The translations under genes and the position numbers were made by a program. Shown one piece after another: positions 47,249-59,550 of a stretch of DNA of 64,000 nt. Source of the DNA: Phlyctochytrium arcticum (lineage: Eukaryota; Chytridiomycota; Chytridiomycetes; Chytridiales; Chytridiaceae); contig JAHLKI010000013.1 of NCBI GenBank assembly GCA_025602905.1, positions 791,196 to 855,195 on the forward strand, given 5' to 3'. The stretch's first letter is position 1. Each line of letters begins with the position of its first letter. The notes under the pieces are model-generated. The model had not been told where the DNA came from, made no database searches, and worked only from the letters and a program-made list of their open reading frames with translations.

Positions 47249-49647
47249 ATGCGTCCCACACAGCGGAGGCGACAAGGTTTATGGGATGGCCAACGACGAT
47301 TGCGGTCTAGAGCTGGGTCCAGTCCACTCAACTGGAAATCTGCCTGGAACCCAAGGTTTCTTCCCGCTATTTATGTCTTTCTGATGTGCTGCTGCCTGGT
47401 GTCCGGACTGGCTTCTGCAATACCGCTCACGGCAAATAGAGTGCCAGACTATTCACCATCCGCTGTTACCATCAGTGCTCCTCCTCCATCACCCCCGCCA
47501 CCATCCTCACCATCTACAACCCCTTCATCCAATTCATCATCTACGACCAACGTCTCACTTCCTGATGATGCTATACCAGTATCGAGCGACACCGACAGCA
47601 GCGCTGCCTGCGCGTGTCCCCTATCGCCCTTACAATCACCTTCGCCTCCGTTGGCGGTCATTAACCAAACCCCACCTGGCACTATACCCCGTATCACCGC
47701 CCCGTGGGCCGATTTGGTCATTGGGTTTTCGTATTTCGCCATTCCGATCGAACTCGCGTTCTTTGTCTACCGCCTTCCGTCAACGACAATTTACCAACGT
47801 TGCGTCGGCGGTCTCTTTGTTTGTTTCATCTTGCTTTGTGGGTTGGGCCACTTTCTCGATGCTGCACACGCCGCGCCCGAATGGGTTCTCGCGGACCGCT
47901 ACGCGACAGCCTTCATATCCGCCGTCACAGCCATTGCCAGTCCGATCGTATTAAGCTACAGTGTTGATGCCGTCAAGCGCTTTTCGGAAGAAAGCAAATT
48001 GGTGGAAAAACAGCGCGACATGTTGGCTGATGCACAGGCCATGACCCATCTAGGCAATTGGGAACTTCAAGCTGATAAGGAAACCGGCCTGCAATGGTGG
48101 CGGGCATCAGATGAACTCTTTCGGATTCTGGGCATGCCATATGGAAGCTACGAAAACAACACGATCCCATTTTCCCGCTACATTGTCTGTGTTGCGGAAG
48201 AGGATCGCGCGGCCTTTATCGAGGCGAATGATGATGCTCTGACCAATGGAGAACAATACAACATCATCCAACGGATATATCGCGAATCGGATCGTCGGGA
48301 AGTGTATATCCGGATTTTCGGAAAGCCAGTCATTGAGGACGGACGAATTACCGGCTTACGCGGAACGGCTCAAGACATTTCGATGCAGATTTCTGGCGAG
48401 CGGGAACTGACACGGGCAAAGGAGGCCGCACTGATAGAATCAAAACATAAGGATATATTCCTTGCCACCATGAGGTATGTGAACATCTTAGGAGTTGAAC
48501 CAGCCTTGCATTGAACACTTGGATAGTCATGAACTACGGACCCCATTGACAAGTATTGCCGGTCACGTCGAACTCATGGAGGAAACCAATCTGGATGTGA
48601 TCCAGCGAGAGTACATGTCAAACGCCAAAAGGTCCACCGCCACGTTACTCTCTCAGATCAACGACATTCTGGATTACAGCAAGCTGATTGCTGGAATGGT
48701 CGAATTGGATCTGCATGTGGCCAACATTTCGGAAATTTTGAGCGATGTGCATGTCATTTCCAATAATCTTAGCAAAGATGTCACGTTGCAGATAGATCCC
48801 TATTCCGGGCCGAACGTTATTGCGGATTCCGTCAGATTAAAGCAAGTGTTGCTTAATCTCGTGAGGTAGGGTTTTGAGGACGCGCATTGAGCAATGCAGC
48901 AATGCTAAACTTTTCGATAGTAATGCGGTCAAATTCACACTGGCGGGGGGATTCGTTCACGTCACCAACTCTTGGACGCTGGATAGCGCGGATAACGTCA
49001 ATCTGACGGTGGCCGTAAAAGATTCTGGCATCGGCATTGCCCCCGATGTCATCCAGCGTCTATTTACACCCTTCACGCAAGCCGACGCTGCGACAAATCG
49101 TCGGTTCGGCGGCACCGGTCTCGGTCTCTCTATTGTCAAAAAGCTTGTCACCGCCATGGCTGGATCCATCCAGGTTGACAGCGTAGAAAATGTGGGATCA
49201 ACTTTCAAAGTCAAATTCCGGATGCCCCGGGCCCACGTCCAAGTCGAAGTTATCCCACCACCTGTGGTCGCCGACAGTTTGATTCGAGTTCTCGTGGCCG
49301 AGGATAACTCTATTACCCAAGAATTGATTCGGCGCATGTTGAAGGGCTACGAGGTGGATGTGGCAGAAAACGGACAAATTGCCGTTGACAAGATTCAAGC
49401 CAACGATGCCTACAATATCCTGTTCTGCGACTTGAACATGCCCGTGATGGATGGGTTAATGGCCGTCAAGCAGATCCGGACCTTACCAAAAGGCCAAAGT
49501 ATCTATATCGTGGGACTGACTGCCAACGCCTTCAAATCCGACCGCGAGAATTGCATTAAAGCCGGCATGGACGATTATTTATCAAAACCGTTTACGAAAA
49601 AGGCACTGCTGGAAATGATTGGCAAAATTCAGAAAAAAAAGAGCTGA
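47249..49647 (+). CDS. Ethylene-receptor-like hybrid histidine kinase
   Basis: Exons 47249-48474, 48527-48865 and 48921-49647 join to 763 residues. A hydrophobic segment (37-59) and a Ser/Pro-rich linker precede three TM helices at about 153-243 that match the plant ethylene-binding domain: Asp155, Tyr162, Ile165, Pro166, Glu168, then LLCGLGH with Cys197 and His201 in the C-x3-H spacing that binds copper(I) in ETR1. A PAS domain follows (259-379), then HisKA with SHELRTPL (His410), HATPase with SNAVKF, DSGIGI and GGTGLGLSI, and a receiver with Asp692 (FCDLNMPVMDG), Thr722 and Lys744. All catalytic residues are intact, so it should autophosphorylate and relay to an HPt protein. Ligand is inferred. 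Unlike ETR1 it has PAS rather than GAF after the membrane domain. Confidence 0.93.
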
Positions 49648-51991: not shown

Positions 51992-54207
51992 CTATGGACT
52001 CAGCAAGACGGCATTGGATGAGGCATTGTTTGCCGTGTTTGTTGGGTGTCCCGCCAAAATCGGAGGGAGAGACTCATTTGCCGCCATGTTGAGGTTGCTC
52101 ATTGACGTGGCGAATCCCCTTGCATGCACGTTGGAGCCCGGTTTGCGTTCTGACATCTTTTTGTTTTGGTAGACGGCCTCGGCAAAAGTGATGACCATCT
52201 TGTGGAAAGCACGCTGAATGAGCCATCTGGTGAAAGAAAAATGAGTTACTCTCGGAAGCAGATGACAGTTGGTGATACATAAAGCCACTTACAGCTCGGC
52301 GATACGTGAGTAACTCGGCCGTTGTAACCCAGTTTCTTTACTGATATCCTGCTGCAAGACATCCTGGAACTTGAAATTGGCCAACAATGATAAATCTCGC
52401 GTGATGCGATGCAAGGCCTTGCTCAGCATCCATGCAAACAACAGGGAAAACAAAAACGAAGTAAAGACGATAGCCAAAACAATTCCCAGTGTTCGTCTCG
52501 TGGAAGTGTCAAATGGCTGCATGACTTTATCCCGGTTGACCAGCGTCAATAATGTCCAGTCCAAATTGTCCCGAGTGATTTTGGTAAACATCATTTGAAA
52601 TTGACCGGTGGGAAGTTTCAATGTGATTGAGGGCATTTCGTGATGACTGTGCAGCTGACTATTCGAATGCCCGTGGGAATCTTCATCGCCCTCTTCCGTA
52701 TGAGTTTCCTCAGCGTGGTGCGCATCCTCGTCCTCCTCGTCATGGACATCTTCCGCTTCATGCAGCTGCCCATGTCGGTTAGCCAAAAACCACTCATAAA
52801 TAGGTTTGACATGCTCGTCGCGTTGCGCAAACGACTCAAACGTCTCTGTGCCAATAATATTGGAAAACGCATCCCGAAAATAAATGTCCGTGTCCGAATC
52901 CGACGTGGCAATAATCCGTGACACGTTGCCCACCGACTCAAACACATAGTTCAAGGTGGGGTATGGGACGTGATCGGCAATTTCGTCGAGTTGGAAGGAT
53001 AGGAAATCCAGACTGATGCTGGTCGAAAATGCACCAATGACATTATTAGTTGGATCGGCAACGACCCGCGAGTGGGTTTTCCAGGCTCGATTGTCCGAGT
53101 ATTCGACCGGATTCCAATTGTACGAGGACGGGTTTGTCATGTTGAGTTCCTGGTAAGGTCATACTTTAGGACCCTGAAGAAGCAAAAAAATGACACCCCA
53201 ATAATTTACCTCCAACCACCAAGCTGAAGCAGCAGTCGAATAGTTTGCACCGGGATAAGTGGTCGTCACAGACACATTATGTCCCTCGCGGTCTACCAAA
53301 ACCTCGTACCCGTTCGAGGCATCATGCATCCATTTACTGAATTTATTGGTCCCATTCTCTTCATCGACAATAACGCCCCATCGTTCGCCTTCCGGGACCG
53401 TCGTGAACCATTGCGCAGTATACAGGGCTTTGTACGCGTAAATGGCATCAAACTGGTGGCCAAAACACATTTAACTTGAATCACAGGAAAGTAGTATGCA
53501 CCGAAAAGAAAGAATCATACCATGGATTGTGTCGTATCAATCTTTTTTTGAAGGGTTGCACTACTGTAGAGTCCGTCCGTAAAGAACCGGTCACCAGCTT
53601 GCGTGGCCGCTTCCACTGTATCCAATTTCATAACAATCAAATCATACTGTGAGAATAGAAAATAGGTAGGTGGTCAGGTCTAGGTCAAACCCCGTCTGCT
53701 ACTGATTGTCATCACATACCACCGCTCGGATAATTTCCACTTGGAGTGCTTTCGACATGTCACTGACAGAATTCTAACATAAAAGAGAATAAGCCCAACA
53801 GTCCACGCATCAAATAGATAAGATGAATTAAATACCGTGGCCGAAATGTTGGTCAACCCCCAACTAAGAAACCCCGTCAGCGCCGTCAGAGACGAAATCA
53901 CAATCACCAAAATCATGACAATCGGCATCCGCCCCCGTCTCAAAAACCGCCAAAACCGCGACAAACTCCATACTCTTCTAGAGGGTTTCGACGAGCCCGT
54001 GCCTTCACTATGGGCCGACAGAGACTGATCCGTTGACGGGGGATTGGTAGAATTGGCCCCGAGATCAGTTTTGGTCCCCTGGCCTCCAGTAGAGACTTCG
54101 AATGCGTTACGGAGGTTGGCCGAGAACCGGGCGACTTCAGAGACGGCATTGGTCCGGAAATTTATTGAGGGGGATTTTTCCACATCGCCTACTTTATTAT
54201 GGGGCAT
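51992..54207 (-). CDS. Two-TM sensor with HAMP-like stalk and no output domain
   Basis: Exons 54207-53836, 53773-53720, 53646-53521, 53452-53210, 53149-52293 and 52226-51992 join to 628 residues. A cytosolic disordered head leads to TM1 (MPIVMILVIVISSLTALTG). A large extracytosolic region follows with features of a double-Cache sensor, such as DNRAWKTHSRVVADPTNNVI and LDWTLLTLVNRD; it also has an acidic, His-rich insert (EDEDAHHAEETH). TM2 is IVLAIVFTSFLFSLLFAWML, followed by a HAMP-like stalk (LSKALHRITRDLSLLANF) and an AFHKMVITFAEAVYQNKKM helix. In related receptors this helix leads into a cyclase or kinase, but here the protein ends about 50 disordered residues later. It may signal through a partner. 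The domain call is by pattern, not search. Confidence 0.8.
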
Positions 54208-55249
54208 GGTATCTGATGAGGTCCTCCTTTGAGGTGTAGGTATATATCCTATGCAAGAAAAATCGGTATGAAGAGGCAGATGCTTGCTGGGATGGATATA
54301 GAAGAGGAAATGCAACAACTCTTCTCCAAGCAAAAATACAAAACAAAATGTAATGCTTTATTCAACAGAAAAAATAGGTGCAGCACAGCAGACTATATAC
54401 CCCAAGTTTTTCTTATTGTAATCTTGGGATTTTTGTATGTCCTATCCCATAATAAGCGCTCCCACCATCCTGCCCGATGGTATTTTTATCTAGACTCAAT
54501 GTTAAACTCCGCCCCGCTGTCCCACACTAAACGACTTTTTTCATTGAAACCCACAAACGATTGCCCACAGTTCTGTTTTCGTGTTTGGCTTTTAACTATT
54601 GAAGGGCAAATTGTTTTGTGGGGCATCGACCGCCCCAGCGGTGTTTTTGGTTGCTGCGCCAAGGTCCGATTTTGCATGAGAGACCCTTACCTTACTTAGC
54701 CAAGGGGGTCGACCTTCGCACCCACATTTACGATACATAGTGGAATGCCCGGCCATATGGTTTTTGAGGATGAGATTACAAACATTCAGACAAACAATGC
54801 GAATATTCGAGGGGTCGTAGTTCTATTTCGGAATCCACCCCAGCTACATAAATGCACCAAGTAAGTGGGAGCCGGGCTGACCCGACACTGTGCAAAGATA
54901 AATATCGGACCATTATACAGTACGTTCAACGCCATGGATTTTTCTAAAGCTTCCAAGTACATATAAAAAAAAAACACCGCCGATTCTCACTGCCCGCCAA
55001 TACATACATCTTTGCCATACCCGGTGCCCGGAACTAACAAAAGTCCAATTTGTCCTTTGCTTGTGCATGCAGTGTCCGCAAAGTATTCTCCATCCGAAAT
55101 GTTTTATTGAACAAAAGAAGAGAATCCAAAACGTTGTATAAGTTACATTAGTTGCATCAAAACCATCTATATCACAAAAATTAAAATACAAAAAGTTTTG
55201 TTCCAAAAAAAGAATCCAAAAAAGATTTAGACCAGCGGTATGTTCGGTA
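54208..55249. other. Intergenic, 1.04 kb
   Basis: AT-rich sequence separating two minus-strand genes. It includes the 3' end of the coiled-coil gene near 55150-55249 and the promoter of the sensor gene. The frame at 54913-55344 overlaps the next gene and has no domain. Nothing else is seen. Confidence 0.4.
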
Positions 55250-58407: not shown

Positions 58408-59550
58408 CTAGTTGGCGTAAGTGAGGACACGGTATGAGCGCTCGTTCTCTTCGTCACCGTCGAAGGCAACATAGGCACCACGCAAGTGCTTGCCACATTT
58501 GCCGGGGACGACGCTGCTCTTGAGGTGGGCTTGGGCAATGTAGATGGGACGGTTGTCCTCTTCACGACCACCCTCAACCAGGCGGAGACCATCGTCACGG
58601 AGTTCGCCGGAACAGTCGACCCATCGGACGGCATTCTCGTATCCGAGGAGAATCTCGTACTTGTTGACTACGCGCTCCTTGCCGTCGACGGCGATACGGC
58701 ACCCGTCAGACATGTTCTTGGAGATTTTGCCAACGTGGACGGCCTTGTCGTAGTATGCACGGGCAATGTAGAGAGGAGTACCGTCGCGATCTTGGCCGCC
58801 AGAGATGGCACCTTGTGGGATGTTGGCTCCATCGGTGAGAACCCATTGGACGGGGGGTAATGACTTGTTGGCCTTGATGGCCTCGAGGTACTCGCCCTGT
58901 CGACGACGGGCATCCGTCTCCCAGTTGGTGGCACCCCAGGCAATTTCCTCCTTTTCTTCCTTGGAGTCCTTGTACTTGTCAAAGGCAAAAGCGCCAATAC
59001 CGATGGCAGCGGCGGTTCCTAGGATACCACCACCAATCTTGAGGGCGTTCTGGTCGACGGCGAAACCGGCAATGTTGAATTCCTTCTTTTGTTGCTTGCG
59101 GGGATCTTCAGAGTTTTCGGGGACGACTTGAGGAGGGTTCTGGGTGATGGATCCGTAGCCGCCAGAGTTGTTCTGACCGCCGTAGCCTTGTTGCTGTTGG
59201 TTGTTGTTGTTGGGAGGTTGCTGCTGGTATGCGGGTTGTTGCTGTTGCTGCTGGTTGTTGTTTTGCTGTTGACCATAACCACCACATTGTTGCTGCTGCT
59301 TTTGCTGCTTGTGCTGGTCGCGGTACTTGTGCTCATCACATTCTGGGATCTTGCCCCACAAAGCAGGAGTACGGTCGGGAGTCCAGTCACCCTGAGAAGT
59401 ATGAGCCTATAATTTTGCACAAAAGTTAGCGACGCGTCTGTAGATCTGTGACAAACGTAAACAAACCTGGATGATGCGGTAAAAGTTGTCGCAGTATTCA
59501 ACAACGTCGCCGTTGGTGTAAGCACAGCCTGGTTCCCATCCTTTGGTCAT
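58408..59550 (-). CDS. CBM5/12, TM segment and DM9 repeats
   Basis: Exons 59550-59467 and 59406-58408 join to 360 residues. Residues 1-50 are a chitin-binding type 5/12 module: WEPGCAYTNGDVVEY, then AHTSQGDWTPD and TPALWGK, with the exposed aromatic residues. A long Gln/Asn/Tyr-rich linker follows. A Gly-rich hydrophobic stretch (LKIGGGILGTAAAIGIGAFAF, about 175-195) could be a TM helix. The C-terminal half holds two DM9 repeats, e.g. WVLTDGANIPQGAISGG with PLYIARAYYDKAVHVGKI, and PIYIAQAHLKSSVVPGK. DM9 proteins bind mannose in some animals. No signal peptide is seen, which is puzzling for a chitin-binding protein. A TATA box lies 97 bp upstream. Confidence 0.85.
59180..59310 (-). repeat. Gln/Asn codon repeat in the CBM/DM9 gene
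   Basis: Runs of CAG, CAA and AAC codons encode the Gln/Asn-rich linker between the chitin-binding module and the membrane segment. The region is low-complexity on both strands. Confidence 0.85.

What the first reader, a model, noticed from the sequence alone, without database searches (positions are those of the whole stretch)
47700..47980. Plant-type ethylene-binding domain in a fungal hybrid kinase
The sequence shows Asp155, Tyr162, Ile165-Pro166, Glu168, and Cys197/His201 in LLCGLGH. In plant ETR1 the equivalent residues are Asp25, Tyr32, Ile35-Pro36, Glu38, Cys65 and His69, with Cys and His holding the copper(I) that binds ethylene. All are kept, in the right order, within three TM helices. 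Ethylene-receptor-like kinases have been reported from early-diverging fungi, so the class is known, but this copy looks fully functional. Ligand sensing, perhaps of plant or algal hosts, is inference.
Basis: partly seen in the sequence, partly recalled or inferred. Interest (0 to 1): 0.85.

Follow-up and report, generated by a model that had tools for sequence, protein, structure and literature searches.

The report
Ethylene-receptor-like kinase in a chytrid
This fungal gene encodes an intact membrane sensor kinase carrying the same copper-site residues that plant ethylene receptors use, and it is closest to a protein already described in a related soil chytrid, so it is a real but largely expected finding.

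Summary
A three-exon gene (47249-49647, +) encodes a 763-residue hybrid histidine kinase. Residues 154-231 match Pfam ETR1_N well above the curated cut-off (52.3 bits, E 7e-14); a search of the 31.5 Mb genome found no second match. The predicted model has three helices, with Cys and His one turn apart on helix 2. Kinase and receiver motifs are intact. "Plant-type" is only partly right. The middle domain is PAS-like, not GAF, and the amino-terminal C-x-x-W motif of the bacterial relatives is missing. The fungal domains form their own group (100/100), though a joint plant-fungal group is not rejected (p-AU 0.29). The class is published: the closest named relative, Spizellomyces SPPG_07928 (76% identity in the domain), was listed as an ethylene receptor homologue in 2017 (PMC5285503). 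I saw no binding test of a chytrid protein. Verdict: new member of a known kind, low to moderate interest.

The parts
47249..48474 (+). exon 1: signal-like hydrophobic segment, Ser/Thr/Pro-rich stretch, ethylene-binding-type domain, PAS-like domain, start of HisKA
   Evidence: open frame; Pfam
48475..48526 (+). intron 1, 52 bases, GT...AG; splicing restores MSHELRTPLT around the phospho-acceptor His410
   Evidence: inferred, no transcript data
48527..48865 (+). exon 2: HisKA with His410 and start of the ATPase domain
48866..48920 (+). intron 2, 55 bases, GT...AG; splicing restores NLVSNAVKF (N box)
   Evidence: inferred, no transcript data
48921..49647 (+). exon 3: HATPase_c and receiver domain with Asp692; stop at 49645-49647
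47360..47419 (+). hydrophobic helix, residues 38-57, read as signal peptide or extra transmembrane helix
   Evidence: hydropathy 2.27 over residues 40-58; helix in model at low to middling confidence
47702..47773 (+). helix 1 of the sensor domain (residues 152-175) with D155, Y162, I165, P166, E168
47789..47863 (+). helix 2 (residues 181-205) with I194, C197, H201; C197 and H201 are the proposed Cu(I) ligands
47876..48046 (+). helix 3 (residues 210-266) with R217 at the place of ETR1 K91, running on without break past the membrane
48104..48370 (+). PAS-like domain, residues 286-374
   Evidence: PAS_3 E 1.8e-4, 22.1 bits, under its cut-off of 25.6; the listed Foldseek matches are mostly PAS/LOV structures
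49429..49431 (+). Asp692, expected phospho-acceptor of the receiver domain
   Evidence: Response_reg E 5.6e-25; position

Best explanation
A chytrid membrane-bound hybrid histidine kinase that senses ethylene. Shown from sequence: domain order, intact catalytic motifs, complete set of copper and ethylene site residues. Inferred: the three helices dimerise and hold one Cu(I) per chain by Cys197 and His201; ethylene binds to that copper; the change passes along helix 3, which continues as one helix into the cytoplasm, through the PAS-like domain to the kinase core; phosphate goes from His410 to Asp692, then to a phosphotransfer protein and on to fungal response regulators. The sign of the response and the source of the ethylene (decaying plants, algae, soil microbes) are unknown.
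For: ETR1_N E 7.1e-14, with HisKA, HATPase_c and Response_reg all over their cut-offs; seven binding residues kept; three-helix model with a continuous third helix; nearest named relative is SPPG_07928, listed as an ethylene receptor homologue (PMC5285503); one Hpt match elsewhere in the genome; an Azospirillum receptor with the seven residues bound ethylene when its first 130 residues were made in Pichia (PMC11819568 passages).
Against: No binding data for any chytrid protein were seen. The C-x-x-W motif at the amino-terminal side, in 20 of 20 bacterial rows, has no counterpart here; 6 of 10 fungal relatives have no Cys at all before the sensor Asp, one of these starting only 10 residues before it, so the dimer contact probably differs. 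PAS_3 is below its cut-off in this copy. No solved structure of the domain was found for an overlay.
Confidence: 0.75

Rival explanations
1. The domain binds copper and reports copper, oxygen or redox state, or another small ligand, and not ethylene.
For: The same Cys-His copper pair would serve a copper or redox sensor; the fungal group sits on a long branch of its own (1.77 changes per column); PAS domains often sense other cues (recalled).
Against: The non-ligand residues I take as needed for ethylene binding in ETR1 (D25, Y32, I35, P36, I62) are kept too in 11 of 11 rows, more than a bare copper site needs.
Confidence: 0.2
2. The gene came from plants or algae by recent transfer (a question of origin; it can hold together with the best explanation).
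For: Glu168 (= ETR1 Glu38) is in 10 of 11 fungal rows and ETR1, in 0 of 20 bacterial rows; a joint ETR1 plus fungal group is not rejected, p-AU 0.286.
Against: Inferred short introns, similar proteins in Spizellomyces and Fimicolochytrium, PAS-like and not GAF, fungal rows one group at 100/100 with ETR1 outside, among cyanobacterial rows.
Confidence: 0.08
3. Pseudogene or contaminant.
For: No transcript evidence was available.
Against: No frame break in the spliced model, catalytic motifs intact; GT-AG introns; the window is a stretch of a contig at least 855 kb long.
Confidence: 0.02

Closest known systems
SPPG_07928, Spizellomyces punctatus (ethylene receptor homologue, Herivaux et al. 2017, PMC5285503)
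   Same: Same five Pfam domains in the same order (PAS_3 passes its cut-off there, not here); 76% identity over the sensor region; 65% to the exon 1 product; all seven binding residues.
   Different: This copy has a much longer amino-terminal Ser/Thr/Pro-rich stretch with a Cys-Ala-Cys; SPPG_07928 has no Cys before its sensor Asp.
Fimicolochytrium jonesii EV422DRAFT_548620 (P0007)
   Same: Same set of Pfam domains, 70% identity over 87% of the sensor region.
   Different: Longer carboxy-terminal tail.
Arabidopsis ETR1
   Same: Three-helix sensor with the seven binding residues, hybrid kinase with receiver (PMC9603746 passages).
   Different: GAF domain (PMC9603746) where this has a PAS-like one; Cys4/Cys6 disulfides (PMC6586836) without a shared counterpart here; Lys91 replaced by Arg217.
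Bacterial and cyanobacterial receptors (Azospirillum AzoEtr1, PMC11819568; the rows)
   Same: Sensor domain and most copper-site residues: Cys65 in 20 of 20 rows, His69 in 19, Asp25 in 16.
   Different: Amino-terminal C-x-x-W in 20 of 20 rows, Glu38 in 0 of 20.
AbETR1/AbETR2 of Agaricus bisporus (PMC9603746)
   Same: Fungal hybrid kinases reported to bind ethylene in yeast (passages).
   Different: That paper places its Cys in transmembrane helix 3; not compared by sequence here.

Membership tests
Ethylene-binding domain (Pfam ETR1_N, PF25487) | profile match over the curated cut-off | tested here: met
   52.3 bits, cut-off 27
Ethylene-binding domain (Pfam ETR1_N, PF25487) | seven residues needed for binding in AtETR1 (D25, Y32, I35, P36, I62, C65, H69) | tested here: met
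   7 of 7 aligned. I35, P36, I62, C65, H69 seen named in PMC6586836 and D25, C65 in PMC11819568; Y32 as one of the seven, and the ETR1 letters, are recalled
Ethylene-binding domain (Pfam ETR1_N, PF25487) | three transmembrane helices | tested here: met
   helices 152-175, 181-205, 210-266; hydropathy peaks in each
Ethylene receptor (functional) | saturable, copper-dependent ethylene binding | not testable with these tools
   bench assay needed
Plant ethylene receptor, subfamily 1 or 2 | GAF domain after the sensor | tested here: not met
   no GAF match at E <= 0.001; PAS_3 below cut-off; mostly PAS/LOV structures in the 50 listed Foldseek rows
Plant ethylene receptor, subfamily 1 or 2 | amino-terminal Cys pair of the disulfide-linked dimer | tested here: inconclusive
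   Cys121/Cys123 lie 34 and 32 residues before D155, against 21 and 19 in ETR1; 6 of 10 relatives have no Cys before the Asp, but P0007 has Cys 22 and 18 before it. No shared motif, yet a disulfide in single members is not excluded. In one search the fungal rows were cropped near the domain, so that call cannot decide this
Fungal hybrid histidine kinase | HisKA, HATPase_c and receiver in one chain | tested here: met

The most novel reading that the evidence does not exclude
The chytrid proteins are a distinct, old branch of ethylene sensors, apart from the cyanobacteria-to-plant line: same copper core, but without the amino-terminal C-x-x-W motif, many with a signal-like amino terminus, and with a PAS relay, so the dimer and signal path are built differently. 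Functional proof would give an independent eukaryotic ethylene-sensing system.
Probability: 0.3. Interest if true: 0.45.

Novelty: new member of a known kind. Interest (0 to 1): 0.25.

Why it matters
If it binds ethylene, a zoosporic fungus can sense a gas given off by plants and soil microbes, and the domain's use in eukaryotes is wider than plants. It adds one clean chytrid case, with no second copy found in its genome, for binding assays. It does not open a new question: the 2017 paper posed it.

Tried and rejected
Viral origin: one viral-contig scan gave one locus (L017; 32 stretches matched a pattern). I dropped it because, read by eye, the frame around the match shows no helix 1 motif and no hydrophobic helices. 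Solved structure of the sensor domain: none by sequence (best E 0.37, a potassium channel) and none titled so among the 50 rows listed by Foldseek. EIN3 (plant pathway) in the genome: no match, but no control genome rang either, so uninformative. Literature on Glu38 substitution: a search for E38A with 'ethylene receptor' and ETR1 gave no paper. The Cys-Ala-Cys at 121/123 as a counterpart of ETR1 Cys4/Cys6: not accepted, since the spacing differs and SPPG_07928 has no Cys there.

Bias and faults to note: the 14 bacterial loci were found with patterns that contain Y32, I35-P36, I62 and C65, so conservation of those residues among them is partly by construction; D25, E38, H69, K91 and the amino-terminal Cys were not in the patterns. 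From (949 of 1233 candidates at E <= 0.001, 120 listed) I used 6 in the tree. In one search the fungal rows were cropped a few residues before the domain, so the lack of an aligned Cys in that call is by construction; the test on uncropped proteins is, made when I checked the report. In one search the Cys listing for P0009 is wrong (the search began past its domain) and is replaced. In one search the pairing of W153 with ETR1 W11 looks like a gap artefact and is not used. The script printed first a wrong splice variant; the one used is 48475-48526 and 48866-48920. The script stopped on an error after its sequence output; the rest was repeated.

Full report
What is there. The window lies on contig C13 of a 31.5 Mb genome in 91 contigs. 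The gene of the finding runs from an ATG at 47249 to a stop at 49645-49647 on the + strand, with two short introns (52 and 55 bases, GT...AG) placed where splicing restores the MSHELRTPLT and NLVSNAVKF motifs of a histidine kinase. The product has 763 residues. Pfam finds, in order, ETR1_N (154-231, 52.3 bits, E 7.1e-14, cut-off 27), a weak PAS_3 (286-374, 22.1 bits, below its cut-off of 25.6), HisKA (402-464), HATPase_c (509-624) and Response_reg (645-755). His410, Asn523, the DSGIGI and GGTGLGL boxes, and the receiver's Asp692, Thr722 and Lys744 are present (roles of these motifs recalled).

D155, Y162, I165, P166, E168, C197 and H201 are all at the stated numbers. In passages of PMC6586836 I35, P36 and I62 are named among residues essential for binding, and C65 and H69 as linked with copper; passages of PMC11819568 speak of seven residues required for binding and say that mutation of D25 or C65 eliminates it. 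Y32 as one of the seven is recalled. So the set is complete. Glu38 is not among the seven as I count them, but its distribution is curious: 10 of 11 fungal rows, ETR1, and 0 of 20 bacterial rows.

Structure. AlphaFold2 on exon 1's product with 11 aligned sequences gives helices 152-175, 181-205 and 210-266, at block-mean pLDDT 79-93 over residues 151-240; the overall mean is 74.6 and pTM 0.43, and most of the first 150 residues are of low confidence. Cys197 and His201 sit one turn apart on helix 2. Helix 3 continues without break towards the PAS-like domain. The 50 Foldseek rows listed from the PDB are mostly PAS/LOV-type proteins, which supports the PAS reading that the profile alone left below its cut-off. 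No solved structure of an ethylene-binding domain turned up by sequence.

Relatives. Two protein searches with the sensor region gave 4 of 185 candidates (E <= 0.001) and 10 of 350 (E <= 10, the weakest at 2.4e-31); the four are among the ten. 10 of 10 carry ETR1_N; 9 of 10 carry HisKA, HATPase_c and receiver, and the tenth (P0005, 426 aa) carries HisKA without the other two; 8 of 10 carry PAS_3. I call the group chytrid after those two names and because the window's own protein is closest to SPPG_07928; no call named the organism of the window. A scan of one genome per prokaryote species gave 14 bacterial loci out of 74 stretches matching a pattern, and a search from a cyanobacterial one gave 949 proteins at E <= 0.001 (120 listed), so the domain is common in bacteria.

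Ancestry. In a tree of 32 sensor domains the 11 fungal rows form one side of a branch at 100/100, the window pairs with SPPG_07928 at 98/93, and ETR1 falls among cyanobacteria, on a long branch. The data do not reject a group of ETR1 with the fungi (p-AU 0.286). So a plant origin is unsupported but one shared eukaryotic origin stays open. Bacterial rows share a C-x-x-W motif before helix 1 (20 of 20). The fungal proteins share no such Cys: read uncropped, 6 of 10 relatives have no Cys before the sensor Asp (one of them, P0009, starts only 10 residues before it), 4 of 10 have some at varying places, and the window has five, the nearest 32 residues away. One relative, P0007, has Cys 22 and 18 residues before the Asp, near the 21 and 19 of ETR1, so a disulfide in single members cannot be ruled out. 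The 11 fungal rows have Arg where ETR1 has Lys91; bacteria have Lys in 9, Arg in 9, other in 2. A hydrophobic amino-terminal segment ahead of the domain passes a hydropathy of 1.5 in the window and in 6 of 10 relatives (P0002, P0005, P0007, P0008, P0010, P0011), not in P0003, P0004, P0006 or the short P0009.

The pathway. The genome search found 20 HisKA matches (exon-level, some within one frame), one CHASE match (the cytokinin-receptor sensor) and one Hpt match. That fits a standard fungal phosphorelay (recalled). EIN3 gave nothing, but the test had no working positive control.

Known or new. Herivaux et al. 2017 (PMC5285503, parts 1-3 of 4 read) described ethylene receptor homologues with the crucial residues in early-diverging fungi, named SPPG_07928 among them, stated that both plant subfamilies, with and without an extra amino-terminal helix, are represented, and proposed plant sensing. 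A search for 'ethylene receptor' with 'chytrid' gave 3 papers, of which that is the relevant one by listing; 'Spizellomyces' with 'ethylene' gave 6, again with only that one relevant by listing. Ethylene binding is reported for Agaricus bisporus proteins (PMC9603746, passages) and for an Azospirillum receptor (PMC11819568, passages). I saw no binding test of a chytrid protein in the listings or in what I read, but a 2023 study of mycorrhizal fungi cited in PMC11819568 was not held, and most subscription papers are outside the library.

Verdict. It is an intact additional member, closest to a published protein. The value lies in testing function, not in the discovery.

Noticed in passing
G000:C1:119571-119858 (locus L002): A single CHASE-domain match (E 1.1e-5) in the same genome: a possible cytokinin-receptor-like kinase, as PMC5285503 reports for Spizellomyces and Gonapodya.
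   Followed up: no
52289-54357, strand -: Two reading frames, each with one membrane-like hydrophobic run read by eye, around a stretch holding a His/Glu/Asp-rich run; no Pfam match for either. Perhaps one split receptor-like gene.
   Followed up: partly
47420-47680, strand +: Ser/Thr/Pro-rich stretch (56% of residues 58-144) between the signal-like helix and the sensor domain, longer than in the ten relatives, with a Cys-Ala-Cys (121, 123).
   Followed up: partly
58408-59406, strand -: DM9-repeat protein (E 3.6e-28) with a Gln/Asn-rich leading part.
   Followed up: no
alignment, column of ETR1 E38: Glu at this place in 10 of 11 fungal rows and ETR1 and in none of 20 bacterial rows; possibly a eukaryote marker, or convergence.
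   Followed up: partly
541-613, strand +: A tRNA gene, the only Rfam match in the window at the gathering scores.
   Followed up: no
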